From Deltaproteobacteria bacterium (GTDB taxonomy: Bacteria > Desulfobacterota > Desulfobacteria > Desulfobacterales > Desulfosarcinaceae): a stretch of DNA of 64,000 nucleotides. The stretch spans positions 248,001 to 312,000 of the forward strand of contig JAKALP010000003.1 of NCBI GenBank assembly GCA_021824175.1, in the 5' to 3' direction. Positions 23,201 to 53,604 of the stretch are shown piece after piece. The translations under genes were made by a program, and so were the position numbers. Below the pieces are notes generated by a model. The model was not told the origin of the DNA and did not search any database. It worked only from the letters and a program-made list of their open reading frames with translations. Every line of letters starts with the position of its first letter. Position 1 is the first letter of the stretch.

Positions 23201-23234
23201 GGGGACTGAGGGACTAAGGGACTAAGGGACTTAG
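23201..23234 (+). repeat. 8-nt periodic G-rich array 3' of macB
   Basis: Four GGGACT-type units start 4 bp after the macB stop: G-tracts of three or more Gs separated by 5 nt, on the coding strand. It fits the G-quadruplex pattern. Related arrays follow four other genes in this window (see 39.9, 41.0, 48.9 and 53.6 kb). Confidence 0.8.
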
Positions 23235-23273
23235 AGTGATGGTCTTGTAAAAAACCGCACAACGGCCGTTAAC

Positions 23274-23300
23274 GTCATCCCCGCGAAGGCGGGGAACCAG
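23274..23300. repeat. Short hairpin repeat GTCATCCCCGC
   Basis: CCCCGC-GAAG-GCGGGG forms a tetraloop hairpin within a word starting GTCATCCCCGC. Words of this kind are dispersed in many bacterial genomes. It lies in the 319-bp gap between macB and the outer-membrane factor gene, which otherwise holds only the neighbouring repeats. Confidence 0.55.
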
Positions 23301-23331
23301 TAAAGAGATTAAGGAAGCATGGCAATCATTC

Positions 23332-23458
23332 AACGCAGAGGCCGCGGAGGGCGCGGAGGTGCGCAGAGATTATTAGAGGAAGAACAATCAGCGGCCACAC
23401 TCCTTTCAGTTCCCATTCTCCTCTGCGTTCCTCAGCGCTCTCTGCGCCTTTGCGTTTT
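23332..23458. repeat. Long imperfect inverted repeat (CTCTGCG family)
   Basis: The left arm (23332-23368, starting AACGCAGAGG) and right arm (23421-23458, ending TTTGCGTTTT) pair imperfectly around about 52 nt. Same family as 16212-16297. Confidence 0.7.
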
Positions 23459-23515
23459 AAAAAATGGCTTGTCTCCTTATCCCGGCAAATCAACTAGAAA
23501 TGAAGGACAATTGCG

Positions 23516-25009
23516 TTGCGAAGTAAAATCTTCACAGGAGTAATTCTGCTGGCCGCGCTGCTATTCATCGGCTGCGCCGTGGGGCCGGATTTCAAGCGAC
23601 CGGAACCTGATGTGCCCGCGAAGTATAGCGGTACCGCGCCGACCGTTCCCGCGGCATCCCCGGCCGCCGCCGATGAGGCTTTGGCGAACTGGTGGCTGGT
23701 CTTCAACGATGCCACCCTGAACAGCTTGATGCAGCAGGCCACGGCAGCCAATCTGAATCTCAAACTGGCCGAAGCCCGCGTGCGCCAGGCCCGCGCGGCG
23801 CGCGGCATTGCGGCCGGCGGCCTGGGGCCTACCCTGGATGCGACCGCCGGCTACCAGCGTAGCGAGGCTAACCTGACCACCACCGCCGGCACCAGCGCCC
23901 AAGTCAGCGCCGATCAGTATCAGGCTGGTTTCGATGCTGGCTGGGAGATCGATATCTTTGGCGGCCAGCGGCGCGCGTTGGAGGCGGCCGATGCTGATTT
24001 GTTGGCGGCCGTGGAATCCCTCCACGATGTGCTGGTGAGCCTGACGGCCGAAGTGGCGCGCAACTACATTCAATTGCGCGCCTATCAGCAGCAGATCCTC
24101 ATCACCCAGAAAAACCTGGCGGCCCAGCAGCACAGCGCCAAACTGACCCGCGAACGCTTCGAGGGCGGGTTCGTCAGCGGCCTGGACGTGGCCAATGCCG
24201 AAGCCCTGACCGCCAACACCTCGGCCCAGCTGCCCTTGCTGGAATCATCGGCCCAGCAGACCATTTACAACCTCAGCATCCTGCTCGGCGAAGCACCGGC
24301 CACCTTGAATGACGAACTTACGCCCACGGCCGCTATTCCCGATGGACCGCCTGAAGTACCCGCCGGCATACCCTCCGATCTGCTGCGCCGGCGGCCCGAT
24401 ATCCGCGTGGCCGAAGCCCGCATCCACGGGGCCACGGCCCGCATCGGCGTGGCCACGGCCGATTTTTTCCCCAAATTCACCATCACCGGGTCCATCGGCT
24501 ACCGCTCCAATGATTTCGGTTCGCTCTTTGACTGGTCCAATCACTTCTGGTCCTTCGGCCCCTCGGCGGTCTGGCATCTTTTCCAGAGCGGCCAGATCCG
24601 GGCCAATGTGGAAGTACAAAAAGCCCTGCAGGAGCAGGAGATGCTCACCTACCGCCAGACCGTGCTGGGCGCGCTGCAAGAGGTGGAAAACAGCCTCGTG
24701 GCCGCCACCAAGGAACAGCAGCACCGCGAAGCCCTGATCACGGCGGTCAATGCCAACCGCAAAGCCGTGGGCCTGGCGGAAAAGCTCTATACCGAAGGTC
24801 TGACCGACTATATCAATGTGCTCCAGACCCAGTTGGCGCTGCTCAACACCGAAAACGCCCTGGTCCAAAGCACGGCCACGGTCTCCACCAATCTGGTGGC
24901 GTTGTACAAGGCCCTGGGCGGCGGCTGGCAGAGCCAGGCCCCGGCAGGCCCAGGCCCCGGCGCGCCCGAACCCGCCCAGGCGGATGCGAGCAGGACGGCA
25001 GAGAAGTAA
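23516..25009 (+). CDS. NodT-family outer-membrane efflux lipoprotein
   Basis: 497 residues from a TTG start at 23516 (AAGGAC upstream; an alternative TTG is at 23511). A lipoprotein signal ends LLFIGCAVGPDF. Two OEP repeats follow (about 60-245 and 265-460), with the family's first-strand word NWWLVFNDATLNSL and the DLLRRRPDIRVAEARIHGA motif. It forms a trimeric channel for tripartite pumps. It sits between macAB and an RND adaptor/pump pair and is the only such channel here. The tail is Pro/Ala-rich. Confidence 0.92.
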   Translation: MRSKIFTGVILLAALLFIGCAVGPDFKRPEPDVPAKYSGTAPTVPAASPAAADEALANWWLVFNDATLNSLMQQATAANLNLKLAEARVRQARAARGIAAGGLGPTLDATAGYQRSEANLTTTAGTSAQVSADQYQAGFDAGWEIDIFGGQRRALEAADADLLAAVESLHDVLVSLTAEVARNYIQLRAYQQQILITQKNLAAQQHSAKLTRERFEGGFVSGLDVANAEALTANTSAQLPLLESSAQQTIYNLSILLGEAPATLNDELTPTAAIPDGPPEVPAGIPSDLLRRRPDIRVAEARIHGATARIGVATADFFPKFTITGSIGYRSNDFGSLFDWSNHFWSFGPSAVWHLFQSGQIRANVEVQKALQEQEMLTYRQTVLGALQEVENSLVAATKEQQHREALITAVNANRKAVGLAEKLYTEGLTDYINVLQTQLALLNTENALVQSTATVSTNLVALYKALGGGWQSQAPAGPGPGAPEPAQADASRTAEK

Positions 25010-25082
25010 AAGCGGCGCGCGGAATTGTTCAAATGATCGGATGGGCTCAACCACCAAACGCAAAAATTGGAATTAACGCAAG

Positions 25083-26255
25083 ATGGTCCAACATTTTGAA
25101 GATATCGAAAGAAGTAAAGTAATTTCCCCGACAACCTGGATCACGGCCTTGGTGATCCTTGTGGCCCTGACCGCCTGTTCGGGCAACGCCGCGGACAAGG
25201 CCCAACGGCCCAAAAGCGCCATGCCGGTCACGGTGGCCACGGCCGTATCCAAAGCCGTGCCCCTTGAACTGCCGGCCGTGGGCACGGTGGAAGCCTACGC
25301 CACCGTGACCGTTAAAGCCCAAGTGGAAGGCGAACTGTCGGCGGTGCTTTTGAAAGAGGGTCAGTGCGTGCAATCCGGCGATCTGCTCTTCAACATCGAT
25401 CCCCGGACCTTCGAAGTACAACTCAAGCAGGCCCAGGCCAACCTGGAAAGGGACAAGGCCCAACTGGCCAATGCCCGGACCGTGCTCGAACGCAACGCCG
25501 CGGTCGTAGAAAAAGGCTATGTCTCCCAGGAGAAGTACGGCCAGGCCGTGGCCGATGCCGCGGCCCTGACCGCCACGGTACGGGCCGATGAAGCGGCCGT
25601 GGAAAAGGCCCAGATCCAGTTGGCCTACTGCGCCATCCGTTCGCCCATCACGGGATGCGCCGGCGAAGTATTTGTGGACCGCGGCAATGTGGTCAAGGCC
25701 AACGATGCCGACCATCCCCTGGCCGTGATCCGCCAGATCCAGCCCATCTATGTCGCCTTTTCCGTGCCGGAACGCTACCTGCCGGAAGTAAAGAAGTATT
25801 CGGCCAAAGCGCCGTTGAAGGCGCTGGCCGCGCCTGCCGGCCAAGGCCAGGCCCCCATGACCGGTGAGTTGACCTTTGTGGACAACAGCGTCAATGCCGC
25901 CACCGGCACTATTTTACTCAAAGCCACCTTTGCCAACCCGGACCAGACCCTGTGGCCGGGCCAGTTCGTCAATGTCACCCTGCAACTGGCCAACGAGCCG
26001 GACGCCGTGGTGGTACCGACCCAGGCCATTCAGACCGGTCAGCAGGGCCAGTATGTCTTTGCCTTGAAACCGGATAACACCGTGGAGGTCCGCAATGTGA
26101 CGGTGGCGCGCACCGCCGGCGGGGAAGCGGTGATCACCTCAGGGATTCAGCCCGGCGATCAGGTGGTCACCGACGGCCAGTTGCGGTTGTTTCCCGGCGC
26201 ATCGGTCAAAATCGTGGCCGGCCTGGAAGAGCAAAAGGGGGCCTCCCAGCCATGA
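25083..26255 (+). CDS. RND-type periplasmic adaptor (MdtA/AcrA-like) lipoprotein
   Basis: 390 residues. The signal VILVALTACSG gives a lipidated Cys. The lipoyl domain (GTVEAYATVTVKAQVEGEL), a short coiled-coil hairpin (about 100-160), the second lipoyl half (IRSPITGCAGEVFVDRGNVV) and beta-barrel (VVPTQAIQTGQQGQYVF) are in the order expected for adaptors of RND pumps. Its stop codon overlaps the pump gene's ATG (ATGA), so the two are translationally coupled. Confidence 0.92.
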   Translation: MVQHFEDIERSKVISPTTWITALVILVALTACSGNAADKAQRPKSAMPVTVATAVSKAVPLELPAVGTVEAYATVTVKAQVEGELSAVLLKEGQCVQSGDLLFNIDPRTFEVQLKQAQANLERDKAQLANARTVLERNAAVVEKGYVSQEKYGQAVADAAALTATVRADEAAVEKAQIQLAYCAIRSPITGCAGEVFVDRGNVVKANDADHPLAVIRQIQPIYVAFSVPERYLPEVKKYSAKAPLKALAAPAGQGQAPMTGELTFVDNSVNAATGTILLKATFANPDQTLWPGQFVNVTLQLANEPDAVVVPTQAIQTGQQGQYVFALKPDNTVEVRNVTVARTAGGEAVITSGIQPGDQVVTDGQLRLFPGASVKIVAGLEEQKGASQP

Positions 26256-29200
26256 ACATTAGTGAACCCTTCATCCGCCGGCCGGTGATGACCACCCTGG
26301 TGATGGCCGGGCTGCTGATCTTCGGGGTGCTGGCCTACCGCATGTTGCCGGTCAGCGAGTTGCCCAATGTGGATTTTCCCACACTGCAGGTGAGCGCTGC
26401 CCTGCCCGGCGCCAGCCCGGAGACCATGGCCTCGTCCGTGGCCACGCCCCTGGAGCGGGAATTCTCCACCATTGCCGGCCTGGACTCCATGACCTCCACC
26501 AGCGCCCAGGGCATTACCCAAATTACCTTGCAGTTTTCCCTGGACCGGGAGCTGGACGGCGCGGCCCAGGATGTCATGGCCGCCATTTCGCGCGCCCAGA
26601 AGCTGCTGCCGCCGGAGATGCCCAACCCGCCTTCCTTCCAGAAGGTCAACCCGGCTGACCAGCCGATTCTTTATGTCGCCCTGAGTTCCAAGCTCCTGCC
26701 CCTTTCGGCGGTGGATGAGTATGCCGAAACCCTCATGGCCCAGCGCATCTCCATGATCAGCGGCGTGGCCCAGGTGCAGGTCTTCGGCTCCCAGAAGTAT
26801 GCGGTGCGGGTGCAGATCAACCCCAACGCCCTCAATGCCCTGGGCATCGGTATTGATACGGTGGAGAAAGCCATTGCCGGCGCCAATGTCAACCTGCCCA
26901 CAGGCACACTTTACGGTCGACACCAATCCTTCACGGTCAAAGCCACCGGTCAGTTGAACGATGCCAAAGACTTTCGTCCCCTGATCATCGCCTATCGCAA
27001 CGGCGCGCCCATCTACCTGGAGCAATTGGGCCGGATCATCGACAGCGTGGAAGACGATAAATCCGTCAGCTGGTACAACAACACCCAGGCCATTGTGCTG
27101 GCCATCCAGCGCCAGCCCGGCACCAACACGGTGCAAGTCGTAGACAACGTCAAGGCCCTGCTGCCTGCCTTCCGGGCCCAGATTCCCGGCTCGGTGGATC
27201 TCAATATTCTCTACGACCGCTCCGAATCGATCCGCGAATCCATCAACGATCTGCAGCTCACCCTGCTGATCAGCATCGCCCTGGTGATCCTGGTGATCTT
27301 TCTCTTCCTGCGCAAGTTGTCGGCCACCATCATTCCCAGTCTGGCCATCCCCCTGTCGCTGATCGGGACCTTCGCGGTGATGCATCTGATGGGCTACAGC
27401 CTAGACAACTTGTCGCTCATGGCCCTGACCCTGTGCGTGGGCTTCGTGGTGGACGACGCCATCGTCATGCTGGAAAACATCGTACGGCACTTGGAGATGG
27501 GCAAGGGTAAACTGCAAGCCGCATTGGACGGGGCCCGGGAGATCGGCTTCACCATTGTCTCCATGACCCTTTCGCTGATGGCGGTCTTCATTCCGCTGCT
27601 CTTCATGGGTGGTATCATGGGGCGGCTGCTGCACGAGTTCGCCGTGACCATCGGTGTGGCCATTCTGGTGTCGGGCATTGTGTCGCTGAGCCTGTCCCCC
27701 ATGCTGTGCAGCCGCTTTCTCAAAGCCCATGGCGAAGAAAAGAGGCAGGGCCGGTTCTATGTGGCGTCGGAGCGGCTCTTTGAAGGCATGCTCAAGTTCT
27801 ACCACAAGAGCCTGACCCGCACCATGCGCCACGGCCGGGCCATGATGGTGCTCTTCTTCCTGCTGCTGGCGGCCACGGTCTATCTCTTTGGCATCATCTC
27901 CAAAGACTTCATTCCAGCCCAGGATACCAGCCGCATCTTTGGCTTTACCGAAGCAGCCCAGGATATCTCCTTTGACAGCATGGTGGCCCATCAGAAGGCC
28001 GTGGCCAAAATCATCGGCGACGAGCCCGCGGTGCAGGAGTTCATGTCCAGCGTGGGCGCCGGCGGACGGCGGGCGGCGGGCGCCAACACCGGCCGGGTCT
28101 TCATGCACTTGAAGCCGCGCTCCCAGCGGCCGGACGTCAACCACATCATTCAGGGCTTGCGGGCCAAGCTGGCGCAGATTCCGGGCATCAATGTCTACTT
28201 GCAAAACCCGCCGGTCATCCGCGTGGGCGGCCAGCTCACCAAGAGCCTCTATCAGTACACCCTCCAGGGGCCGGACATCGATGAACTCTACCGCTGGGCC
28301 CCGAAGGTGGAAGCGACCATGAAAGCCTTGCCCGGCTTGCTGGATGTGACTAGTGATCTGCAGATCGCCAGCCCCCAGGTGAAGATCGCCATTGACCGCA
28401 ATAAAGCCACGGTGCTGGGGGTGACGGCCGATCAGATCGAAAACGCGCTATACAGCGCCTATGGTTCCCGGCAAGTCTCCACCATCTATGCGCCCAATAA
28501 TGAATATCAGGTGATCCTGGAAGTGGAACCGCGATACCAGCGCGATCCCGCGGCCCTGGCCCTGCTGCATGTCCAATCCAGCAGCGGTCGCCTGATCCCC
28601 CTGGACACCGTGGCCCACGTGGTGCCGCAGTTGGGGCCCATGACCGTCAACCATACCGGCCAGCTGCCCTCGGTAACCCTCTCCTTTAACCTGCGGCCCG
28701 ACGTGGCCCTGGGCGATGCCATCAACCGCATCAGCGCGGCCATGATCAATCTCGGCGCGCCGGCCACCCTCACCGGCACCTTCCAGGGCACGGCCCAGGA
28801 GTTCCAGAAATCCCTCACCGGCATGTGGCTGCTGCTGGCCATGGCCATTGTAGTGATCTACATCGTGCTGGGCATTCTCTACGAAAGCTTCATCCACCCG
28901 CTGACCATTCTCTCCGGCCTGCCCTCGGCCGGCGTGGGCGCGTTGCTGACATTGCTGCTTTTTAAAACCGTTTTGAGTATCTACGCCTTCGTGGGGGTCA
29001 TCATGCTCATCGGCATTGTCAAGAAGAATGCCATCATGATGATCGATTTCGCCCTGGCGGCCCAGCGCGAAGCCGGACTAAGCCCGGAAGAAGCCATCTT
29101 CAAGGGATGTATGCTGCGCTTCCGGCCCATCATGATGACCACCATGGCGGCCCTGATGGGCACCCTGCCCATTGCCCTGGGCCTGGGCGCGGGCGCCGAG

Positions 29201-29362
29201 GCGCGCCAACCCCTGGGCCTGGCCGTGGTGGGCGGGCTGGTGGTTTCCCAGTTCCTGACCCTCTACATCACACCTGTGATCTATCTCTACCTGGATTCTT
29301 TTCAGCGTCGGGTTCGACAAATCTTTGCCAAGTCGCAGCCCAAGGACTCCATCCTGAATTAG
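26252..29362 (+). CDS. RND multidrug efflux transporter (HAE1/MdtB-like)
   Basis: 1036 residues, normal for the HAE1 class. It starts SEPFIRRPVMTTLVMAGLL, the first transmembrane helix. Two large periplasmic loops and twelve predicted helices follow. The proton-relay aspartates of TM4 are present (GFVVDDAIVMLENIVRH), as are the PxxLIGTFAVMHLMGYSLDNLS-like region before it and GIVKKNAIMMIDFA in the second half. It should export hydrophobic compounds through the NodT channel encoded upstream. The substrate cannot be predicted. Confidence 0.93.
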   Translation: MNISEPFIRRPVMTTLVMAGLLIFGVLAYRMLPVSELPNVDFPTLQVSAALPGASPETMASSVATPLEREFSTIAGLDSMTSTSAQGITQITLQFSLDRELDGAAQDVMAAISRAQKLLPPEMPNPPSFQKVNPADQPILYVALSSKLLPLSAVDEYAETLMAQRISMISGVAQVQVFGSQKYAVRVQINPNALNALGIGIDTVEKAIAGANVNLPTGTLYGRHQSFTVKATGQLNDAKDFRPLIIAYRNGAPIYLEQLGRIIDSVEDDKSVSWYNNTQAIVLAIQRQPGTNTVQVVDNVKALLPAFRAQIPGSVDLNILYDRSESIRESINDLQLTLLISIALVILVIFLFLRKLSATIIPSLAIPLSLIGTFAVMHLMGYSLDNLSLMALTLCVGFVVDDAIVMLENIVRHLEMGKGKLQAALDGAREIGFTIVSMTLSLMAVFIPLLFMGGIMGRLLHEFAVTIGVAILVSGIVSLSLSPMLCSRFLKAHGEEKRQGRFYVASERLFEGMLKFYHKSLTRTMRHGRAMMVLFFLLLAATVYLFGIISKDFIPAQDTSRIFGFTEAAQDISFDSMVAHQKAVAKIIGDEPAVQEFMSSVGAGGRRAAGANTGRVFMHLKPRSQRPDVNHIIQGLRAKLAQIPGINVYLQNPPVIRVGGQLTKSLYQYTLQGPDIDELYRWAPKVEATMKALPGLLDVTSDLQIASPQVKIAIDRNKATVLGVTADQIENALYSAYGSRQVSTIYAPNNEYQVILEVEPRYQRDPAALALLHVQSSSGRLIPLDTVAHVVPQLGPMTVNHTGQLPSVTLSFNLRPDVALGDAINRISAAMINLGAPATLTGTFQGTAQEFQKSLTGMWLLLAMAIVVIYIVLGILYESFIHPLTILSGLPSAGVGALLTLLLFKTVLSIYAFVGVIMLIGIVKKNAIMMIDFALAAQREAGLSPEEAIFKGCMLRFRPIMMTTMAALMGTLPIALGLGAGAEARQPLGLAVVGGLVVSQFLTLYITPVIYLYLDSFQRRVRQIFAKSQPKDSILN

Positions 29363-29493
29363 GCCGCCTTATTTCCGAATTTGGTTACGCTGGAAGCCGG
29401 GCGGTGCGGTCTTCCAAACCATGGGCAGTTCCGATATAACCAACCCTATCTACCCGCCCAAACAACGGCCCATACATAAAAGGAGGAGATGGT

Positions 29494-31182: not shown

Positions 31183-31201
31183 ATTCGGACGGTGATTCCA
31201 C

Positions 31202-31260
31202 ACTACAAGCCATCTCAATCAGGCTTTTAGTCCAAAGTCCTTTTTGAGATGGCTTGTAGT
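31202..31260. terminator. Perfect 17-bp stem between convergent genes
   Basis: ACTACAAGCCATCTCAA (31202-31218) pairs perfectly with TTGAGATGGCTTGTAGT (31244-31260) around a 25-nt loop. It lies between the ends of the propeller gene and of the gp19-like gene. No run of Ts follows either side, so it may be a stabilising 3' stem rather than a simple intrinsic terminator. Confidence 0.65.
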
Positions 31261-31267
31261 AGAAGTA

Positions 31268-32257: not shown

Positions 32258-32584
32258 CGTTTTCTCCTTTAAGAAAAATGTAAAAAATAGAGGTTGGAAG
32301 ATTTTGTCGAAGATCCCGCTTGATCCTGGCTGGGAAACTGGAATCCTTTTTTTAAAATGGCTTGCAATGCTCCTATAAAAGCCCACGTTTATGCCGGCTG
32401 TCAATCTCTTTCCGCTAAGTCCACAAAAACTGGCAGTATGATTCACAATTGCAACTGCAAGCCATTGCAAAAAAATCTATGCGACCAAAATCCGCATTTT
32501 GAAGTGGTCTGTAAAAGGCGGTCAGAGAGAAGTACATTTCATTGACTCATACGAAACGACATTTAGAATGCCCGGCCAAATTAA

Positions 32585-39787: not shown

Positions 39788-39822
39788 CCCCTCACCCCAA
39801 CCCTCTCCCCATGGGGAGAGGG
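39788..39822. repeat. CTCACCCC...CTCTCCCC hairpin repeat (1)
   Basis: CCCTCTCCCC-AT-GGGGAGAGGG preceded by CCTCACCCCAA. The same element recurs at 40878-40912 and 48738-48775, each in intergenic DNA. Words of this type are dispersed in many bacterial genomes. Confidence 0.7.
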
Positions 39823-39870
39823 AACTCCTCTACGTACGATTACCGCTACATCCAGAAGATTTGCTTACCT

Positions 39871-39905
39871 CAGTCCCTTAGTCCCTTTGTGCCTTTGTGC
39901 CCCCT
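39871..39905 (-). repeat. 8-nt periodic G-rich array 3' of copy B
   Basis: On the minus (coding) strand, G-rich units including AAGGGACTAAGGGACTGAGG lie 25-60 nt after the stop codon of 39930-40529. Confidence 0.7.
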
Positions 39906-40877: not shown

Positions 40878-40912
40878 TCCTCACCCCGACCCTCTCCCAA
40901 AGGGAGAGGGAG
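40878..40912. repeat. CTCACCCC...CTCTCCC hairpin repeat (2)
   Basis: Duplicated copy of the element at 39788, with CCCTCTCCC-AAA-GGGAGAGGG, 120 bp downstream of nuoN. Confidence 0.7.
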
Positions 40913-40971: not shown

Positions 40972-41024
40972 CTCCGCCCCTTTGTCCCTCAGTCCCTTTG
41001 TCCCTCAGCCCCTTAGTCCCTTAC
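40972..41024 (-). repeat. 8-nt periodic G-rich array 3' of nuoN
   Basis: On the coding strand of nuoN at least six G-tracts of three or four Gs, spaced 4-5 nt apart, begin 8 nt after the stop codon. It matches the four-tract G-quadruplex pattern more than once. Confidence 0.8.
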
Positions 41025-41031
41025 CACCCCA

Positions 41032-45903: not shown

Positions 45904-45904
45904 A

Positions 45905-46213
45905 TCAACCTCGCAACCTGCTGGCCTGGTCCACGTCCAGGGAGTGCATGCGGTGATACCATTCCAGCACCAGGGCCAGGCCCACCGACACTTCGGCCGC
46001 GGCCATGGCCAGCACGATCAGAAACATAATCTGGCCGTCGGGCTGCCCCCAGCGCGCGCCGGCAACCACAAAGGCCAGACCCGCGGCATTGAGCATAATC
46101 TCCAGGCCGAGCAGCATGAAGATGATGTTGCGCCGGGTCAGCACGCAAATCACGCCCAGCAGAAAAAGAGCGGCGGCGAGCAGTAATCCATGGGAGAAGG
46201 GAATCGTCACCAT
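45905..46213 (-). CDS. nuoK: NADH-quinone oxidoreductase subunit K
   Basis: 102 residues with three helices. The conserved glutamate in [17 protein letters not shown] and the second in [13 protein letters not shown] are both present. It starts at 46213, directly after the nuoJ stop codon (no gap). Confidence 0.94.
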
Positions 46214-46723
46214 TTATGCTTCTCCTTCTGCTTCTTTTTGGGGTCGGGCCAGATGATAGGCGCCCACTAATCCGGCCAGCAGCATGACCGAGGCCAACTC
46301 AACGGCCAGCACGTAGGGCCCGAAGAGGGCCAGGCCGACCTCACGGGGGCCTATGGCGGCAGGCGTTGTCGCCGGTGCACTCCAACCTCCCAATACGTAG
46401 ACCAGCTCGGCCAGCAACACGGCCGCCAGCAGGCCGGGACCGACCCAGGCAGCGGGCCGCAGCCACTGGCGCTCGCCCCGGACCGAATGGGTCCCCAGGT
46501 TGAGCATCATGACCACGAAGACAAAGAGTACCATGATGGCGCCGGCATAGACAATTACTTCCAGGGCCGCGGCGAACGGCGCGCCCAGGAGAAAGAAGGC
46601 CAGGGCTGCGGCCAGCAGCGACACGATCAGGTAGAGCAAAGCGTGCACGGCGTGGGCGCGCGTGATCACCAGGAGGGTGGCGAGGATGGCCACGGCGGCG
46701 GCGAGGTAGAATAGAGTATTCAT
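46214..46723 (-). CDS. nuoJ: NADH-quinone oxidoreductase subunit J
   Basis: 169 residues, five helices. The conserved region VIVYAGAIMVLFVFVVMMLN is clear. The last residues are a charged tail. It is separated from nuoI by 111 bp that carry an inverted repeat (46758-46816). Confidence 0.93.
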   Translation of the reverse strand: MNTLFYLAAAVAILATLLVITRAHAVHALLYLIVSLLAAALAFFLLGAPFAAALEVIVYAGAIMVLFVFVVMMLNLGTHSVRGERQWLRPAAWVGPGLLAAVLLAELVYVLGGWSAPATTPAAIGPREVGLALFGPYVLAVELASVMLLAGLVGAYHLARPQKEAEGEA

Positions 46724-46757
46724 TGTTGGACCTTTGTTGATTCGTTATTCGTTAATT

Positions 46758-46816
46758 CGTTATTCGTTGATTGGTAGGGTTGGCGAGGACACGAATCAAC
46801 CAATCAACGAATAACG
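46758..46816. repeat. Inverted repeat between nuoI and nuoJ
   Basis: Perfect 18-bp arms CGTTATTCGTTGATTGGT (46758-46775) and complement (46799-46816). A part-copy (CAATTCGTTATTCGTTGATT) lies at 52922-52941 just before nuoF, so the element has a preference for nuo spacers here. Confidence 0.75.
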
Positions 46817-46834
46817 ACTCAACGAACAAACGGG

Positions 46835-47350
46835 CTACGGCATTAGACTCCTGACATCCACCGGCGGCGACTCGTTCTCGGCCTGGCCTTTATCTTTGCC
46901 CTCAATGGCCAATCCGGCCACATTATAGAAATTGTAGCCGGGATACTTGCCTGGCCCGCTGATGAGAAGATCTTCTTTTTCGTACACCAGTTTGCTGCGG
47001 TCGTATTCGCACATCTCATAGTCGGGCGTGAGCTGGATGGCCAACGTGGGACAGGCCTCTTCGCAGAACCCGCACAAAATGCAGCGCGAAAAATTGATGC
47101 GGAAAAAGGCCGGGTAGCGCCGCCCGTCTTCACCCTGGGCGGCCTGCAACGCGATGCAATCCACCGGACAGGCGGCCGAACACAGGTAGCAGGCCACGCA
47201 GCGCTCCCTGCCGTCCGGATCGCGCGCCAAAATGATCCGGCCCCGGAAGCGCGGCGCCAGATAAGGCTTCTCTTCCGGGTACTGGATGGTTTCGCGCGGC
47301 GCCAGCGTATGGCGTAGTACTTCGCCTATGGTGCGTAGAATGCTGAACAA
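46835..47350 (-). CDS. nuoI: NADH-quinone oxidoreductase subunit I
   Basis: 171 residues with two [4Fe-4S] motifs: [15 protein letters not shown] and [12 protein letters not shown]. These are the N6a/N6b clusters that carry electrons to N2. It starts 15 nt after the higA-like gene's stop, so it is probably read through from nuoH and higA. Confidence 0.95.
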
Positions 47351-47365
47351 ATCACCTTCTCCTTG

Positions 47366-47665
47366 TTAAGCCGCAATCTGTGACCACGGCTTGATTTTCT
47401 TCAACTCCGGTCCGAGGGTGCGCTCCGCGACTTCAGTATCGTGAGCTGCCTGAGCTCTCAGCCAATAGCCGCTGGAAAGGCCGAAGAACCGACACAACCG
47501 TAAATCCGTATCCGCGGTGATTGACCGCTTGCCCGCAATAATTTCGCTGATGCGCTGCGCGGGGACCCCAATTTCTTTGGCCAAACGATATTGACTAAGC
47601 CCCATGGGAAGTAAAAATTCCTCCAAGAGAATCTCTCCTGGCGTAATAGGTGAAAGTTTGCTCAT
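47366..47665 (-). CDS. higA: HigA-type antitoxin (XRE family) inside the nuo operon
   Basis: 99 residues from ATG 47665 (GGGAG 7 nt upstream); the frame extends to 47692. It begins ITPGEILLEEFLLPMGLS, the classic HigA opening, followed by a helix-turn-helix (QYRLAKEIGVPAQRISEIIA, then GKRSITADTDLRL) and YWLRAQAAHDTEVA. Normally it neutralises a HigB ribonuclease encoded just upstream and represses the operon. Here HigB is reduced to its last codons. The gene sits between nuoH and nuoI, in the same direction. Confidence 0.9.
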   Translation of the reverse strand: MSKLSPITPGEILLEEFLLPMGLSQYRLAKEIGVPAQRISEIIAGKRSITADTDLRLCRFFGLSSGYWLRAQAAHDTEVAERTLGPELKKIKPWSQIAA

Positions 47666-47678
47666 ACATGATCTCCCT

Positions 47679-47705
47679 TCAGTGGTAATCAACGATTTCC
47701 ACTCT
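47679..47705 (-). pseudogene. higB: Remnant of the HigB toxin C-terminus
   Basis: On the minus strand the codons read R-V-E-I-V-D-Y-H-stop (47705-47679). VEIVDYH-stop is a typical end of HigB toxins, and it ends 13 nt before the HigA start, the normal spacing of a higBA pair. The rest of higB is absent: the remnant abuts the nuoH stop codon (47706-47704). It is short, so chance cannot be excluded, but position, frame and sequence all agree. Confidence 0.65.
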
Positions 47706-48660
47706 ATACCCCCTTAGCCAGCATCACCGCCCCGGTCACCAGCAGATTGACCAGCGCCACGGGCAGCAGCACTTTCCAGCCAAAGGCCATCAGCTGGTCG
47801 TAGCGCGGCCGGGGCAGGGAGGCCCGCACCAGAATGAACCCGCTGATGAAGATTAACGTCTTGAGCAAAAACCATACAATGGGTGGCAGCAGAGGGCCGT
47901 GCCAGCCGCCGAAGAACAGGGTGACGATCATGGCCGATATCATGGTCACGCCCAGATACTCTCCCACGAAGAAGAGTCCGAACTTGATGCCCGAGTATTC
48001 GGTGTGAAAACCGGCGATCAGCTCGCTCTCGGCTTCGGGCAGGTCAAAGGGCATGCGGTGGGTTTCGGCAAAGCCCGCGATGATAAAGACCACCATGGCC
48101 GGGAACTGACTGATGCAGAACCACATCTTCTCCTGAGCGACCACGATCCGGCCCAGGTTGAACGAGCCTGAAATCATGACGACGCCCATGAGGGCCAGGC
48201 CCATGAACACTTCGTAGCTCAACATCTGGGCCGTGGCGCGGATGGCGCCCAGCAGGGCGTACTTGTTGTTGGAGGCCCAGCCGCCCAGGGCAATGCCGTA
48301 GACGCCAAGGGAAGACATGCCCAGGAAGAAAAGTAAACCCACGTTGAGATCGGAGACCGCGATGCCCGGCATCACGGGCAGCACCGCGAAGGACATCAGC
48401 ACGCTGACCACCAGCATGGCCGGCGCGACCACGAAGACCATGCGATCGGCAAAGGGTGGAATCCAATCTTCCTTGAAGAAGATCTTGATCATATCAGCCA
48501 CCACCTGCATCAGGCCGAAGGGGCCGACCCGGTTGGGGCCGTAGCGGTCCTGCCAGAGGCTGAGCAGCCGCCGCTCCAGCCAGATCAGGCCGGCGCTGGC
48601 GCTCATGGCGCCGCCGAAGATGACGACAATGATCAGCAATTGCTTTACTATGGGGTTCAT
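47704..48660 (-). CDS. nuoH: NADH-quinone oxidoreductase subunit H
   Basis: 318 residues, eight helices. Landmarks are [34 protein letters not shown] and [20 protein letters not shown] with its conserved acidic loop. It lies at the quinone-binding interface of the membrane and peripheral arms. The protein is full length, so the higB remnant next to it has not damaged it. Confidence 0.95.
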
Positions 48661-48737
48661 ACACCTGCCTTAAAATAGACTTTCACTTACCCAATAATGC
48701 TTCCTTGCTCTCGCACGAAGCCACAAATCCGCGGTTG

Positions 48738-48775
48738 CCCCTCACCCTGATCCTCTCCCCATCGGGGAGAGGGAG
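48738..48775. repeat. CTCACCC...CTCTCCCC hairpin repeat (3)
   Basis: CCTCTCCCC-ATC-GGGGAGAGG preceded by CCTCACCCTGA, in the 283-bp nuoG-nuoH spacer. Confidence 0.7.
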
Positions 48776-48820
48776 TTCTTCTCCGAACAACCTGCTCTCC
48801 CAAGCATGAAAAATACTTCT

Positions 48821-48925
48821 CAGTCCCTCAGTCCCTTCGTCCCTTTGTGTCTCTGTGCCTTTGTCCCTTAGTCCCTCAGTCCCTTTGTGCCTTTGTGCCT
48901 CTGTCCCTCAGTCCCTTTGGCCCTC
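48821..48925 (-). repeat. 8-nt periodic G-rich array 3' of nuoG
   Basis: About 13 octamers of the type TCCCTCAG / TCCCTTTG / TGCCTTTG on the plus strand. On the nuoG coding strand they are GGGAC-type tracts that begin about 19 nt after the stop codon, with further G-tracts between. The longest array in the window. Confidence 0.85.
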
Positions 48926-48943
48926 CCCTTAATCCCTCATCCC

Positions 48944-51637
48944 CTACTGCTCCACTTTCGCCACCGCCGGCAGCGTGATGGTCGGCATACCCGGCAGGCC
49001 CACTGGCCAGGCCAGCAGACCCGGCGCCAGGCCCGGAACAATGCGCACGATCTGCTCGGTGAGCAGATCGCCGATGCGCAGCCAGACGGCCTGACCTTCC
49101 ACGGCGAACCCGTTGTCCGGACCCAACCCCACATGGGGTCCGGGCGCCCGCTGGGCCACGGCGGGCGCGACTATGCTCAGTTCTTCGCTGCCGAAGATAA
49201 TCGTCATGGGCACCACTTGAAACTCTGCGTCAGCCAGGGATTTTACCGGCGCTGCAGAAGAAATGGGTGCTGGCCCCGCACTGGCCGCAGGTGTAATCAA
49301 GCGCCGGCCCGAATCGGCGTTTTGCAGGGGACCGCTGATTTCCCCCTGAAATTTGTGCAGGGCCTGCTCGGAATTCCAACCAGGTGCCCATTCCCGCATA
49401 GTCAGGGCCGGCGGTTGGGGACCGTCAAAGCCTTCCATGCTGTAGGCCAACGGCGCGTCGGGATCAGCCGGCGGCTTGGGTTCGTGCACGCTCAAATGGG
49501 CCCGCATGGCCGTGCGGCCAGAATAACGATGGGATTGACGCGGCAGCTTGCCGTCCAAAGTGGGCACGCTCACGGTCGGAGACAGCTCTGTTATCGGCTT
49601 GAATACCGGCAGAGCCTTGGCCAGATCCACGGCCACATCGTCGATACTCTTCCAATTCTCCAAGCCCTTGCGGTCCATGGCTTGGGCCATGGCTTGCAGC
49701 CAGCGCCAGGAAGCGCGCGCAGTACCCGAAGGCGGCATCACGGCATAGGCGCGCTGGGCCCGGCCTTCATTGTTGACCAGCGTGCCGGCCGCTTCAGCCA
49801 AAGGGGCAGCGGGAAAAACCAAGTCAGCCTTGACCGTGGTGGCGGTGGTCAAGTGATCGAGCGCGACTACTTGGCGCGCCTTGGCCAGCAATGCTTCCAC
49901 GGTCGCGGGTTGGGCCCGGCGGAAGAGATCGTTTTCCAGGATGATCACGGTCTCGGCCGTGCCCTGGGCCACGGCTGCCAAGGCTTTTTCAAGGCTGTGG
50001 GGCTGCATGAGGGCCAAGCCCATACTGTTAGCTTCGGGCAGACAGAAGAAAAGCTGGGCGTCGCGGCCCTTGGCTTTAAGATGCGCCGCAATGGCTGCGG
50101 CCGCTTGCAGCAGGCCCGGCTCACATAGCGAAAACCCTGTGGCGACCAAGGGGCGCTGGGCCTTGAGCAGGGCCTGGGCCGTTTCCCAGGCCATGGCGGT
50201 GACGGCGTCGACATCCTCGGCGGGTGGTGCCGTTGCTTCCAGGGCCGCCAGCACCGCTGAACCAAAACGGACCAGTTCCTGGGGCGATGCCTGCAAGGTG
50301 CGCCAGGCTTCATCATCCAGGCGCGTGGCATGGGTGGCGGCAATGAACAGGTTGGGTAAATTCAGTTGGGCCAGTTCGCGCACACCGGAGTCATTCCAGG
50401 CCGGCAATTGAAATCCCGCGGCCATCACGGCCGCCTTGCGAAAGCGCATGCGGCGCAGATTCAGGGCCAGCAGGGGCGCGCTCTGGGTCACATCTTCGCC
50501 CAGCACCAGGGCCGCATCACTTAAGCCCGCGCCTTGCAGGGTGGTTGCCGGCACTGAGCCATCGGCCAGGATGGCCCGTACAATCTCCAAACCGCGTTGA
50601 TCGTCGGCCGATACGCCGGCATAGAAGTTATCAGGTCCCACCAGGGCGCGCAGGGCAAAGTTGGTTTCCGAAGAGGCGCGGGGCGAGCCGATGCCGATCA
50701 CTTTTCCTTTGGCGGCCATGGCGGTCCACTTGGACAGAGCTGCCTCGACCGTCAGCGGTACTGCCGGAGCTTGACCGCGCTGGAAGTGCAATGGCTGGCG
50801 GATGCGCCGCTCGCTGTTAACGTAATCATAGCCATAGCGGCCCCGGTCGCACAAAAAATAGCCGTTGATCTGGTGATGGTAGCGATTGCGCACCCGCCGC
50901 AGCTCGCCGTAGCGCTCGCCCAGAATAGTGTTGCAGCCCAGGCTGCAGTGGGGGCAGATGGAAGGCGCGGTTTGCAGATCCCATTTGCGCGTGTGATTGC
51001 GCTTGAAGGGGCGGTCCGTGTAGACGCCCGTGGGGCAGATCTCCACCAAATTGCCGCTGAATTCACTCTCCAGGGCACCGTCCTCGAAGCGGCCGAAGTA
51101 AAGACGGTCATGGCAGGCAAAGACATTGAGGTCCGTACCGCCCGCATAATCATGGTAGAAACGTACGCAGCGATAGCACTGGATGCAGCGATTCATTTCG
51201 TGATTGATGAAAGGCCCCAGGTCCTGATTGCGATGGGTGCGTTTGGGAAAGCGGTTGCGGCGGTAATTGTGGCCGCTCATCACGGTCATGTCCTGCAGAT
51301 GGCACTCGCCGCCTTCGTCGCACACCGGGCAGTCATGGGGATGGTTGAGCATCAGCCACTCGATGATGCTGGCCCGGAACTGCACGGCTTCGGGATCATC
51401 GATGGCAATGCGCGTGCCTTGGTCGGCCGGGGTCAGGCAGGCCATGACCAATTCGCCGCGCGTATCTTTTTCGTCCTTGAAGCGTTTGACCGCGCACTGG
51501 CGGCAGGCGCCCACCGAACCCAGGGCCGGATGCCAGCAGAAATAGGGCAGATCAAAACCCAGCTCCAGGCAGGCTTGCAGCAGGTTGAGGCCCGGGGCGA
51601 CGGTGTACGGTTGATTATCAATATAGATGGTCGGCAT
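48944..51637 (-). CDS. nuoG: NADH-quinone oxidoreductase subunit G
   Basis: 897 residues from ATG 51637, which shares bases with the nuoF stop (TGATG); the longer open frame to 51886 overlaps nuoF. The N-terminal [2Fe-2S] site uses C34, C45 and C48. His/Cys motif HPHDCPVCDEGGEC, then CIQCYRCVRFYHDY for [4Fe-4S] clusters, and CPHCSLGC at the start of the molybdopterin-type domain (an N7-like cluster). The rest is a shortened molybdopterin fold without the cofactor. It is the large subunit of the NADH-oxidising arm. Confidence 0.94.
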   Translation of the reverse strand: MPTIYIDNQPYTVAPGLNLLQACLELGFDLPYFCWHPALGSVGACRQCAVKRFKDEKDTRGELVMACLTPADQGTRIAIDDPEAVQFRASIIEWLMLNHPHDCPVCDEGGECHLQDMTVMSGHNYRRNRFPKRTHRNQDLGPFINHEMNRCIQCYRCVRFYHDYAGGTDLNVFACHDRLYFGRFEDGALESEFSGNLVEICPTGVYTDRPFKRNHTRKWDLQTAPSICPHCSLGCNTILGERYGELRRVRNRYHHQINGYFLCDRGRYGYDYVNSERRIRQPLHFQRGQAPAVPLTVEAALSKWTAMAAKGKVIGIGSPRASSETNFALRALVGPDNFYAGVSADDQRGLEIVRAILADGSVPATTLQGAGLSDAALVLGEDVTQSAPLLALNLRRMRFRKAAVMAAGFQLPAWNDSGVRELAQLNLPNLFIAATHATRLDDEAWRTLQASPQELVRFGSAVLAALEATAPPAEDVDAVTAMAWETAQALLKAQRPLVATGFSLCEPGLLQAAAAIAAHLKAKGRDAQLFFCLPEANSMGLALMQPHSLEKALAAVAQGTAETVIILENDLFRRAQPATVEALLAKARQVVALDHLTTATTVKADLVFPAAPLAEAAGTLVNNEGRAQRAYAVMPPSGTARASWRWLQAMAQAMDRKGLENWKSIDDVAVDLAKALPVFKPITELSPTVSVPTLDGKLPRQSHRYSGRTAMRAHLSVHEPKPPADPDAPLAYSMEGFDGPQPPALTMREWAPGWNSEQALHKFQGEISGPLQNADSGRRLITPAASAGPAPISSAAPVKSLADAEFQVVPMTIIFGSEELSIVAPAVAQRAPGPHVGLGPDNGFAVEGQAVWLRIGDLLTEQIVRIVPGLAPGLLAWPVGLPGMPTITLPAVAKVEQ

Positions 51638-52914
51638 CAACTTCTCCACGGGCAGCGCTTTTCGCGGATGTGGCGCTGAAAATCTTCTTCGAAGTACTTC
51701 AAGGCGCTTTGTAGCGGTTCCATGGCGCCGGGCGCCAGGGCGCAGTAGGTGCGGCCCGGCCCCAGCAGCCGGGTGTGTTCCTTGAGTATGGCGATATCTT
51801 CGGGCGCGCCCTGACCCTGCTCGATGGCGGTCAGGATCTTGGCCAGCCAGGGCAGCCCTTCCCGGCACGGCGTGCACCAGCCGCACGACTCCTGGGCGAA
51901 AAAGCGCATCAGGTTGGCCACCAGACCCACGATGCAGGTTTTGTCATCCACCACCACCATGGTGCCAGTGCCCAGGCGGCTGCCGGCGGCCGCCACGCCG
52001 TTGAAATCCATGACCACATCCAGATGGTCGGCCGTGAGCAAATCCGTGGAGGCGCCGCCGGGTAGAATGGCCCGCAAAGCCAGACCTGGGCGCAATCCGC
52101 CGGCATGTTCTTCCAGCAGTTCCCGGATCGTGACCCCCAGAGGCAGCTCCCAGGCGCCGGGGCGTTTTACTTTGCCGCTCACGCCGTAGATCTTGGTGCC
52201 GCCGTCGGCCACGCGGCTCAAGCCCCGGAACCAGGCCGCGCCATGGTTGATGATGTGGGGCACGTTGCAGATGGTCTCCACATTGTTGGCCACCGTGGGT
52301 TTGCCCCACAAGCCGATGACCGGCGGAAAGGGCGGCTTGGCGCGCGGGTTGGCGCGTTTGCCTTCCAGGGCATTGAGCAGAGCGGTCTCTTCGCCGCAGA
52401 TATAGCGGCCGGCGCTGGCGTGCAGGTGCAGCTCCACGCTGAAGGGTGAGCCCAGAATGTTATGCCCCAGATAGCCTTGGGCCTGGGCTTCGGCAATAGC
52501 CTTATCTATGCGGCGGAATGCTTCGGTGTAAGTGGTCCGCAAGAAGATATAAGCAACAGGCGCCTGGATGGCGTAGGCCCCGATGATGATGCCTTCAATG
52601 AGCTGATGGGGATCGCCCTCCAGCAGCACGCGGTCCTTGAAAGTGGCCGGCTCCATCTCGTCGGCATTGATCACCAAATACTTCAATCGGGGCGCGTCGT
52701 CGCCCATGGGCACGAAGCTCCATTTGCGGCCCGTGGGAAATCCGGCGCCGCCGCGGCCGCGCAGATTGGCTTCCAACACTGCCGTCGTCACCTGCTGGGG
52801 CGTCATGCTGGAAAGCACTTTGCGCAGGGCCTGGTACCCGCCGGCTTTTTCATACTCGGCCAGGCTCAGGGGCGGCTGGTTGGGGCGGATATTTTGGGTG
52901 AGAGGACGTTGCAT
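51637..52914 (-). CDS. nuoF: NADH-quinone oxidoreductase subunit F
   Basis: 425 residues. The NADH/FMN site GRGGAGFPTGRKW, the RAEMEPATFKDR-like stretch (NADEMEPATFKDRVLLEGDP) and the [4Fe-4S] motif SCGWCTPCREG are present. It oxidises NADH via FMN. A 122-bp spacer with a GTAGGGTGCGC repeat separates it from nuoE. Confidence 0.95.
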   Translation of the reverse strand: MQRPLTQNIRPNQPPLSLAEYEKAGGYQALRKVLSSMTPQQVTTAVLEANLRGRGGAGFPTGRKWSFVPMGDDAPRLKYLVINADEMEPATFKDRVLLEGDPHQLIEGIIIGAYAIQAPVAYIFLRTTYTEAFRRIDKAIAEAQAQGYLGHNILGSPFSVELHLHASAGRYICGEETALLNALEGKRANPRAKPPFPPVIGLWGKPTVANNVETICNVPHIINHGAAWFRGLSRVADGGTKIYGVSGKVKRPGAWELPLGVTIRELLEEHAGGLRPGLALRAILPGGASTDLLTADHLDVVMDFNGVAAAGSRLGTGTMVVVDDKTCIVGLVANLMRFFAQESCGWCTPCREGLPWLAKILTAIEQGQGAPEDIAILKEHTRLLGPGRTYCALAPGAMEPLQSALKYFEEDFQRHIREKRCPWRS

Positions 52915-52963
52915 GGTTTGTCAATTCGTTATTCGTTGATTGGCTGAATCGCTATTCTTCAAT

Positions 52964-53021
52964 GGTGCGCAAAGCGCACCCTACGGTATACGCTCGGTTC
53001 GTAGGGTGCGCTTTGCGCGCC
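52964..53021. repeat. Inverted repeat, GTAGGGTGCGC family (second copy)
   Basis: 22-bp arms (52964-52985, 53000-53021), one mismatch; same element as 36853-36910, placed in the nuoE-nuoF spacer. Confidence 0.8.
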
Positions 53022-53036
53022 AACGGCCTTGACTAT

Positions 53037-53501
53037 TCATTTGTAACTCTCCAGGATCGCGTCGATCTTCTCCGCGTCCAGACAGCCATAGAGCTCGTCA
53101 TCGATCATCATGGCCGGCGCCTTGTCGCAGGCGCCTAGGCAGACATGGGGCAGTAAAGTAAACCGGCCGTCGCGAGTGGTCTGGCCCATACCAATGCCCA
53201 GCCGGCGCTGCAAATGCTCCAGCAGATTTTCGTAGCCCATGACCCAGCAGCTCACGCTGTCGCAGATCAGGATCACGTGACGGCCCACGGGCTGGCGGAA
53301 GATGAGATTATAAAAGGTGGCCACCGAATCCAGCTCGGCCGGGTCCATGGCCAGGGCCGCGGCCACGTCGCGCAGGGTATCGTCCGACACCCAGCCGCGG
53401 TGGCGCTGTACGATGCGCAGGGCGTCGATGCCGGCCGCCTTCTTAAGATCGTAATGGGCCATGGCAGCGACGATTTCTTCTTTTTCCGTGGGGCTTAACA
53501 T
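53037..53501 (-). CDS. nuoE: NADH-quinone oxidoreductase subunit E
   Basis: 154 residues with the thioredoxin-like [2Fe-2S] domain. Cluster cysteines are in CDSVSCWVMG and in HVCLGACDKAP. The N-terminal helices (AAGIDALRIVQRHRGWVSDD) are typical. It works with NuoF and NuoG in the NADH dehydrogenase module. Confidence 0.94.
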   Translation of the reverse strand: MLSPTEKEEIVAAMAHYDLKKAAGIDALRIVQRHRGWVSDDTLRDVAAALAMDPAELDSVATFYNLIFRQPVGRHVILICDSVSCWVMGYENLLEHLQRRLGIGMGQTTRDGRFTLLPHVCLGACDKAPAMMIDDELYGCLDAEKIDAILESYK

Positions 53502-53577
53502 ATTACTTCGATCCTGATTCTGTTTTATATGGCTAAAAGAAAAGCTTCTGAGATTTCGTTCACCCCTGCTTCATCCT

Positions 53578-53604
53578 CAGTCCCTTAGCCCCTTTGTCCC
53601 TCAT
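53578..53604 (-). repeat. G-rich array at the nuoCD stop codon
   Basis: On the coding strand the stop codon is itself part of the array (TGAGGGACAAAGGGGC, then AAGGGACTGAGG). Three tracts of three or more Gs and one of two. Confidence 0.7.

What the first reader, a model, noticed from the sequence alone, without database searches (positions are those of the whole stretch)
23201..53604. Oriented G-rich 8-nt arrays just 3' of five stop codons
Arrays at 23201-23234 (macB), 39871-39905 (chalcone-like copy B), 40972-41024 (nuoN), 48821-48925 (nuoG) and 53578-53604 (nuoCD) all start within about 60 nt of a stop codon, and all are G-rich on the coding strand, on both chromosome strands. The GGG tracts are spaced 5 nt apart, matching the G3-N1-7 rule for G-quadruplexes. 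The repeated orientation suggests a role in the mRNA 3' region (termination, stability or downstream coupling).
Basis: partly seen in the sequence, partly recalled or inferred. Interest (0 to 1): 0.72.

Follow-up and report, generated by a model that had tools for sequence, protein, structure and literature searches.

The report
Repeat-ended elements carrying ribosomal-intron-protein genes
The repeat arrays just after these genes look like the leftover ends of a little-known kind of selfish DNA element that, in its complete form, carries a small protein gene of unknown function (the "23S rRNA intervening sequence protein") between two mirror-image arrays of short repeats.

Summary
The arrays are real, oriented as described and far above chance. 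The genome-wide rule is wider than "3' of stop codons": the G-rich strand starts at the edge of an ORF, stop or start, in 39 of 40 arrays sampled; families without GGG tracts (GTTGATTC 27 of 28, AAGTTTA 17 of 17) do the same. In two congeners the nuoG-H and nuoD-E gaps are 5-26 nt without arrays, so those arrays are one end of intergenic insertions. Elsewhere the space between two mirror-image arrays holds a gene of Pfam PF05635 (23S rRNA intervening sequence protein, IVP). 72 of 102 IVP loci have mirror-image flanks above the 95% level of mismatched pairs, against 14 of 362 host small genes; short tandem repeats flank 68 of 103, against 8 of 91 stretches farther out. The host has an IVP gene bracketed by these very octamers, absent from a close congener. 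The published, unexplained GGGAATC arrays also bracket an IVP gene in the one genome found. The window's arrays are best read as solo ends of IVP-type elements. A G-quadruplex 3'-UTR role is not needed. How the elements move is unknown.

The parts
23202..23233 (+). solo octamer array, 4 units, 5 nt after the macB-like stop
39870..39901 (-). solo octamer array, 4 units (two GGCACAAA, then GGGACTAA, GGGACTGA), 28 nt after chalcone-like copy B stop
40981..41020 (-). solo octamer array, 5 units, 11 nt after nuoN stop
48820..48923 (-). solo octamer array, 13 units, 20 nt after nuoG stop (G-rich degenerate sequence runs up to the stop codon, by eye)
53577..53600 (-). solo octamer array, 3 units, abutting the nuoCD stop codon
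48661..48943 (-). nuoG-nuoH gap: 283 nt carrying the array; the gap is 5-8 nt in congeners G006 and G008
53502..53600 (-). nuoCD-nuoE gap: 99 nt with array; 19-26 nt without array in G006 and G008
46740..46826 (-). nuoI-nuoJ gap: mirror-image pair of another array family (GTTGATTC-type; arms 46740-46768 and 46791-46826), folds as one long RNA hairpin (z -8.5)
48740..48772 (-). CTCCCTCTCCC-type palindrome 3' of the nuoG array
40879..40909 (-). same palindrome type 3' of the nuoN array
39790..39821 (-). same palindrome type 3' of the chalcone-like B array

Best explanation
The arrays are arms of a class of small intergenic selfish elements. A complete element is [short-tandem-repeat array] - [one ~120-codon gene of family PF05635, 23S rRNA IVP, relative of DGR Avd] - [the same array in mirror image]. 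Both arrays point inward and their outer ends abut the neighbouring ORFs. The repeat unit (6-9 nt, mostly 7) differs between element lineages. In the host genome the GGGAC-octamer lineage has one gene-bearing copy (locus L221) and many gene-less pairs and solo arms; the five window arrays are solo arms. Transcribed, paired arms form one long hairpin, which would let RNase III cut the insertion out of mRNA as it does the IVS in 23S rRNA (inferred). Shown: geometry, presence/absence against congeners at some sites, IVP between arms, arms that go with IVP relatedness at unrelated sites. Inferred: transposition, role of the IVP protein, descent of solo arms from complete elements, RNA excision.
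For: Edge rule 39 of 40, inward pairs 9 and outward 0; same in three more families. nuoG-H and nuoD-E gaps short and array-free in two congeners. 3-unit octamer pattern in 0 of 59 other genomes, 10 of them congeners. PF05635 between inverted octamer arrays in two Phycisphaerae and one unclassified bacterium. Host IVP gene L221 (141 bits) bracketed by the same octamers; congener G008 aligns on both sides (88% over 1393 nt, 73% over 237 nt) with 46 nt in place of 528 nt. Mirror-image flanks in 72 of 102 IVP loci against 14 of 362 host control genes. Tandem repeats in at least one flank in 68 of 103 IVP loci, against 8 of 91 windows 740-900 nt farther out and 37 of 362 host genes; period 7 in 51 of the 68. 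35 of 40 named genomes with the octamer pattern have PF05635 (40 of the 80 loci were given), against 161 of 297 in the host's phylum and 76 of 369 in one class. Three GGGAATC units in a row: 1 of 369 genomes, and its one IVP gene lies between GGGAATC arms. IVPs at least 60% identical at sites with no shared flank share arm 8-mers in 59% of 56 pairs against 13-19% for less related ones, 16% in the wrong orientation. Octamer label clusters on the IVP tree: 5 changes, minimum of 500 shuffles 10. Array length differs between near-identical elements in G002 and G007.
Against: None of the five window arrays has an IVP gene or a detected mirror partner in its gap; their link to IVP rests on the shared repeat unit and geometry. 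30 of 102 IVP loci do not pass the mirror test; only 27 of the 72 that pass have a strong period (at least 0.6) in the aligned stretch, and both flanks reach the tandem threshold in only 20 of 103 (1 of 91 and 3 of 362 in controls). Direct (same-direction) flank similarity is also raised, 17 of 73 against 5 of 150. The GTTGATTC and TCGTAC families have no IVP of that unit among the three host IVPs, and TCGTAC breaks the edge rule (30 of 42). No excision product, target duplication or transposase was found. L289 and L293 share octamers though their IVPs are only 22% identical. Octamer-bearing IVPs may group simply by host phylum, which was not tested. The 56 close pairs come from a few clusters. 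In G758 only 64 of the 106 PF05635 positions match. CCCGTTGG gave 12 matches in the reversed control.
Confidence: 0.66

Rival explanations
1. RNA or DNA G-quadruplex elements selected at gene 3' ends (first reader; the same kind of bias was reported for GGGAATC).
For: Three of five arrays meet the G3N1-7 rule; partnerless arrays in tandem gaps are 13 stop-side to 1 start-side; Rehm et al. showed G4 folding of GGGAATC-type oligonucleotides by CD (PMC4692102; abstract, sections 13, 14, 16 and passages read).
Against: Families without GGG tracts obey the same edge rule; 11 of 40 arrays lie 5' of a start codon on the other strand; two of five fail the rule; the congeners read have none at the same nuo genes.
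Confidence: 0.12
2. Ordinary replication slippage of short repeats in neutral intergenic DNA, kept out of ORFs by selection.
For: Arrays vary in unit number and avoid ORFs (0 of 41 mostly inside a called ORF).
Against: Slippage gives neither mirror-image pairs (26 inward, 0 outward over four families), nor the edge rule, nor IVP cargo, nor the same octamers in several phyla.
Confidence: 0.05
3. Arrays are binding sites of the IVP protein or another host factor (regulatory or chromosome-organising) and IVP genes merely carry their own sites.
For: Arm sequence correlates with IVP relatedness; solved relatives have five chains per entry (2GSC, 2RLD), and 2GSC is titled as five four-helix bundles (reference list), which could suit repeated sites.
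Against: Presence/absence against congeners, species restriction and unrelated neighbours look selfish rather than regulatory.
Confidence: 0.12
4. Arrays are written by a reverse transcriptase from a repeat-bearing RNA, as telomerase does, with IVP acting like Avd.
For: PF05635 is homologous to DGR Avd (PMC10053308, passages; the host IVP also hits Pfam bAvd); the G>C strand points inward in both arms in 64 of 105 IVP loci against 69 of 288 control genes.
Against: RVT_1 is absent from 34 of 60 IVP-bearing genomes searched, including the GGGAATC one.
Confidence: 0.05

Closest known systems
Intervening sequence (IVS) of 23S rRNA with the S23/IVP reading frame (Coxiella and others)
   Same: Same protein family; terminal inverted repeats forming a long stem; tandem heptamers (GACAGAT) of strain-variable number 5' of the ORF in Coxiella; called selfish (PMC4990558, passages read).
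   Different: Here the elements lie between protein genes, the arms themselves are tandem arrays, the unit differs by lineage, and gene-less copies abound.
GGGAATC / GGGGA(C/T)T heptamer arrays of Xanthomonas and Nostoc (Rehm et al. 2015, PMC4692102)
   Same: Intergenic; almost always nearer to the 5' neighbouring ORF than to the 3' one whatever its direction; convergent pairs, 70 cases in one X. campestris genome; length varies between relatives.
   Different: Read there as quadruplex-forming SSRs, generally not associated with mobile elements; no link to IVP genes is made in the text (terms 'intervening', 'four helix', '23S' absent).
TAACTGA repeats of Beggiatoaceae, Cyanobacteria and Bacteroidetes (PMC4679880, abstract and passages)
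   Same: 7-nt intergenic arrays scattered over phyla.
   Different: In the Beggiatoaceae genome mostly just upstream of start codons and nearly all direct; the terms 'intervening', 'four helix', 'S23' are absent.
MITEs and REP/RAYT elements
   Same: Small, intergenic, hairpin-forming, non-coding copies with a coding relative (recalled).
   Different: Ends are variable tandem arrays, not a fixed terminal sequence; the gene is IVP, not a transposase.
Avd of diversity-generating retroelements
   Same: Homologous small helical-bundle protein (PMC10053308, passages; Pfam bAvd hit).
   Different: I did not search the IVP loci for template and variable repeats; the G716 matches read as DGR-type and were left out.

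Membership tests
IVP-type element (defined here) | mirror-image, inward-pointing short-repeat arms | tested here: not met
   The five window arrays are solo: no partner of at least 2 units in the same gap. The nuoI-J pair in the window does have both arms.
IVP-type element (defined here) | PF05635 gene between the arms | tested here: not met
   No PF05635 match in the window; the three host matches lie on contigs C48 (two) and C10. One of them, L221, has the same octamers as arms.
IVP-type element (defined here) | outer end of an arm abuts an ORF edge, strand pointing away from it | tested here: met
   All five: 0-28 nt on the 5' side against 75-451 nt on the 3' side.
IVP-type element (defined here) | inserted relative to close relatives | tested here: met
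   nuoG-H and nuoD-E compared with G006 and G008; the nuoN gap has different neighbours there; the macB and chalcone-like B gaps were not compared.
23S rRNA IVS | located inside a 23S rRNA gene | tested here: not met
   Window arrays lie between protein genes; no Rfam family reached its threshold in the window.
G-quadruplex motif | four G3 tracts with loops of 1-7 nt | tested here: inconclusive
   Met by 3 of 5 arrays, not by 2.
G-quadruplex motif | folds in vitro or in vivo | not testable with these tools
   Needs CD or rG4-seq.
Mobile element | observed transposition, target duplication or excision | tested here: inconclusive
   Presence/absence at orthologous gaps shown; no target duplication seen by eye at nuoG-H; no event observed.

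The most novel reading that the evidence does not exclude
PF05635 (IVP) proteins define a pan-bacterial class of mobile elements whose ends are not a fixed sequence but lineage-specific arrays of 6-9-nt repeats in mirror image; the classical 23S rRNA IVS is a special case, and several published, unexplained heptamer and octamer families of bacterial intergenic DNA are its gene-less offspring.
Probability: 0.45. Interest if true: 0.9.

Novelty: new variant of a known kind. Interest (0 to 1): 0.76.

Why it matters
PF05635 proteins have been known since 1993 (Ralph and McClelland, seen only as a reference), have solved structures (2GSC, 2RLD) under the name 'uncharacterized protein', and were found in 161 of 297 genomes of one phylum. 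Unexplained G-rich heptamer arrays have been described separately. If they are parts of one element, both puzzles become testable together: does IVP bind its own arms, and does an IVP gene with arms jump while one without does not? It would also give a non-regulatory reason for a published bias (G-rich repeats near stop codons) that has been discussed as possible G-quadruplex regulation. My ten paper searches showed no paper that links the two; the library lacks most subscription journals.

Tried and rejected
G-quadruplex 3'-UTR function: rejected as the general cause. Reverse-transcriptase-written arrays: RVT_1 missing in 34 of the 60 IVP-bearing genomes that I gave of the 76 found; the host has one partial RVT_1 match. 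Many near-identical IVP copies in G716 as proof of jumping: the copies read as DGR-type units (by eye), so they were dropped. Copies in G270 look like duplications beside a CRISPR array (by eye). My simple gene caller missed the host IVP gene at C10:167144, so 'intergenic' can include an IVP gene. No match to any Rfam family in the window. Fold of the solo nuoG-H insert is no better than shuffles (z -0.7), so a hairpin role for solo arrays is not supported. The literal search for octamers in papers gave nothing relevant among the 15 of 2,317 papers listed. Mirror test by exact 9-mers was weaker (20 of 43 loci against 14 of 288 host genes) and was replaced by alignment. The seven repeat families were picked; besides the five reported, GAAGGTA gave 4 of 4 (reversed control also 4) and CATCCGTG 3 of 3, too few to use.
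Full report
CHECK. The five arrays exist as described: 23202-23233 (+), 39870-39901, 40981-41020, 48820-48923 and 53577-53600 (-), 3 to 13 octamers each, 0-28 nt after a stop codon, G-rich on the coding strand; the gene names agree with Pfam. Units are GG[GC][AG]C[TA][AG]A. Three of the five meet the G3N1-7 rule; chalcone-like B and nuoCD do not. The window lies in an unnamed 6.07-Mb genome (contig C22:248001-312000) with 253 GGGACNNAGGGAC sites against 1 for the backward pattern. A three-unit pattern occurs 145 times in the host and in 0 of 59 relatives, 10 of them congeners, some incomplete.

GEOMETRY. In 1.197 Mb of the host (and the window) I found 41 octamer arrays of at least 3 units (reversed sequence: 0); 40 have called ORFs on both sides, 1 does not. 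In 39 of 40 the 5' end of the G-rich strand is nearer to an ORF than the 3' end. The near ORF ends there (stop, same strand) in 29 and starts there (opposite strand) in 11. Nine neighbouring pairs point inward, none outward. Arrays without a detected partner between co-oriented genes are 13 stop-side and 1 start-side. A general tandem-repeat scan gave 224 intergenic and 35 intragenic arrays of period 5-10, with 18% of the sample intergenic. Families picked from that scan were tested in the same way: CCCGTTGG 24 of 25, GTTGATTC 27 of 28, AAGTTTA 17 of 17, with 17 inward and 0 outward pairs and no stop bias (stop:start 12:13, 13:15, 8:9); TCGTAC is weaker (30 of 42; 15 inward, 0 outward). CCCGTTGG also gave 12 matches in the reversed control. 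So the rule is 'arrays point into the gap from its edges', not 'arrays follow stop codons', and it does not need G tracts.

INSERTIONS. Two congeners (G006, G008) have a contiguous nuo operon. Gap lengths host / G006 / G008: nuoG-H 283 / 5 / 8; nuoD-E 99 / 26 / 19; E-F 122 / 15 / 18; C-D 118 / 9 / 9; I-J 111 / 62 / 28; H-I 353 / 31 / 679; A-B 70 / 67 / 67; B-C 18 / 40 / 40 (congener figures are distances between alignment ends and can be off by a few nt). By eye none of the relatives read has an octamer array there: four genomes after nuoG, five after nuoN, two in the other gaps. In the host the nuoG array lies at the stop-codon end of the extra stretch. The nuoI-J gap has a mirror-image pair of the GTTGATTC type. 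The macB and chalcone-like gaps were not compared.

OTHER PHYLA. Of the 103 arrays of at least 3 units in these loci, 61 could be placed between two called ORFs: 47 of 61 obey the edge rule and 38 of 61 have a stop on the near side; 32 lay too near a locus end and 10 inside called ORFs. Mirror pairs occur in several phyla.

THE GENE BETWEEN THE ARMS. In L095, L100 (Phycisphaerae) and L118 the DNA between inverted octamer arrays encodes PF05635 proteins (109, 86, 85 bits; cut-off 33.8). PF05635 then turned up in the host three times and in 7 of 11 genomes of the genus, in 161 of 297 of the phylum, in 76 of 369 of the class of the gammaproteobacterium Sinimarinibacterium (a few of these are DGR-type), in 35 of 40 named genomes that hold the octamer pattern (40 of the 80 loci were given; the five without are three Streptomyces, Cupriavidus and Sinimarinibacterium), and in none of 14 control genomes. 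Reading the flanks by eye, most IVP genes sit between mirror-image arrays whose unit differs by locus: the window's octamers (host L221), CCCGTTGG (host L228), AAGTTTAA (host L233 and congeners), GAGTAC, GCGGAATG, TTCAGTG, GGGAATAGGGAGTA and so on. Measured: 46 of 73 loci exceed the 95% level of mismatched flank pairs, against 17 of 73 for direct similarity, and 2 of 150 (direct 5 of 150) for host genes. On the larger set, 72 of 102 usable loci of 105; the best-fitting period of the aligned arm is 7 in 52, 8 in 14 and 6 in 3 of the 72, but only 27 of 72 have a period strength of at least 0.6 over the whole stretch. Host genes of 240-800 nt: 14 of 362 (direct 17 of 362). A separate test for tandem repeats in the 160 nt next to the gene: at least one flank in 68 of 103 IVP loci, both in 20; the same loci 740-900 nt farther out 8 and 1 of 91; host genes 37 and 3 of 362; the period is 7 in 51 of the 68. 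Thirty of these loci come from genomes chosen for having the octamer pattern; 16 are from the genus; the others were the best-scoring IVP genes of the groups searched.

THE HOST'S OWN COMPLETE ELEMENT. L221 (C48) has an intact 119-codon IVP (141 bits) between GGGACTAA...GGCACAGA and the mirror image. Congener G008 aligns on both sides (88% over 1393 nt, 73% over 237 nt) with 46 nt where the host has 528. At queA-tgt, four congeners (G002, G003, G007, G009) carry an IVP element with AAGTTTAA-type arms that reaches from near the stop to near the start codon, three (G006, G008, G010) have the two genes side by side without it, and the copies in G002 and G007, whose tgt stretch is identical over 951 nt, differ in the length of one array.

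A PUBLISHED PUZZLE FITS. Rehm et al. (PMC4692102; abstract, sections 13, 14, 16 and passages read) described GGGAATC arrays in Xanthomonas with the same edge rule and 70 convergent pairs in one X. campestris genome, linked them to G-quadruplexes and generally found no association with mobile elements. Of 369 genomes in the class, one (G758) has three GGGAATC units in a row. Its single PF05635 match (78 bits, first 64 of 106 positions) lies between a biotin carboxyl carrier-type gene and a biotin carboxylase gene and is bracketed by GGGAATC units and their mirror image. The closest solved structure to the host IVP is XCC0516 of X. campestris (2GSC, E 1.7e-22). The Coxiella rRNA IVS has strain-variable heptamers 5' of its IVP frame (PMC4990558, passages).

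ARMS GO WITH THE PROTEIN. Among 5172 pairs of 103 IVP loci with no shared flanking protein (81 pairs dropped), pairs at least 60% identical share four or more inward arm 8-mers in 59% (56 pairs, from a few clusters), against 13-19% in the less related bins; in the wrong orientation the figure is 16%. Mantel r 0.106, maximum of 300 permutations 0.068. On a tree of 107 IVPs the octamer label (14 tips, 5 with both arms and 9 with one; L095 and L293 are one locus) needs 5 changes; 500 shuffles gave at least 10. Against this, L289 and L293 share octamers with only 22% protein identity, and grouping by host phylum was not tested.

HOW IT MAY WORK. Paired arms fold into long RNA hairpins: z -5.4 for L221, -5.1 for L347, -5.0 and -6.7 for two gene-less pairs, -8.5 for nuoI-J (the five paired cases tried). 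The solo nuoG-H insert does not (z -0.7). Inferred: RNase III trimming, as for the rRNA IVS, lets such elements sit inside operons; the IVP helps to mobilise copies with matching arms. Reverse transcription is not required today: RVT_1 is found in 26 of the 60 IVP-bearing genomes given, and not in G758. Not explained: how both arms keep one unit, and why solo GGGAC arms persist on the stop side.

VERDICT. Observation confirmed; the mRNA 3'-end and quadruplex reading is not needed; best read as solo arms of IVP-type elements. The strongest result, the link between IVP genes and mirror-image short-repeat arrays, lies outside the window.

Noticed in passing
window 47366-47692 (nuoH-nuoI gap): A 108-codon HTH_3 protein (HigA-antitoxin-like by eye) sits inside the nuo operon without a visible toxin gene; in congener G008 the gap is about 680 nt and seems to hold a toxin-antitoxin pair, in G006 it is about 31 nt.
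   Followed up: partly
window 52915-53036 (nuoE-nuoF gap): GTAGGGTGCGCTTTGCGCACC palindrome in a gap that is 15-18 nt in congeners; similar palindromes fill other host gaps (C10:178.8k, C14:171.7k).
   Followed up: no
   Followed up: no
host C22:35.6-36.1k, 209.9-210.3k; C14:39.3-39.8k, 349.7k; C10:179.0k: A MITE-like element of about 350 nt with terminal inverted repeats (AGTACACACGGTAGTAATTACGATGACGTATTG...) that encloses octamer arms and a shared core, whole or in part at each place (by eye).
   Followed up: partly
host sample, many places: Hexamer TCGTAC/CGAGTA inverted arrays about 25 nt apart and CATCCGTGN/CACGGATGA inverted arrays about 15 nt apart: compact palindromes; the hexamers do not follow the gap-edge rule strictly.
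   Followed up: partly
L343 and L344 (G270): An IVP gene with its arms duplicated several times beside what looks like a CRISPR array; this may bear on a report of IVP genes in cas loci (PMC3936711, passage read).
   Followed up: partly
L333-L342 (G716): About ten near-identical units that read as diversity-generating retroelements with Avd in a 1.5-Mb genome.
   Followed up: no
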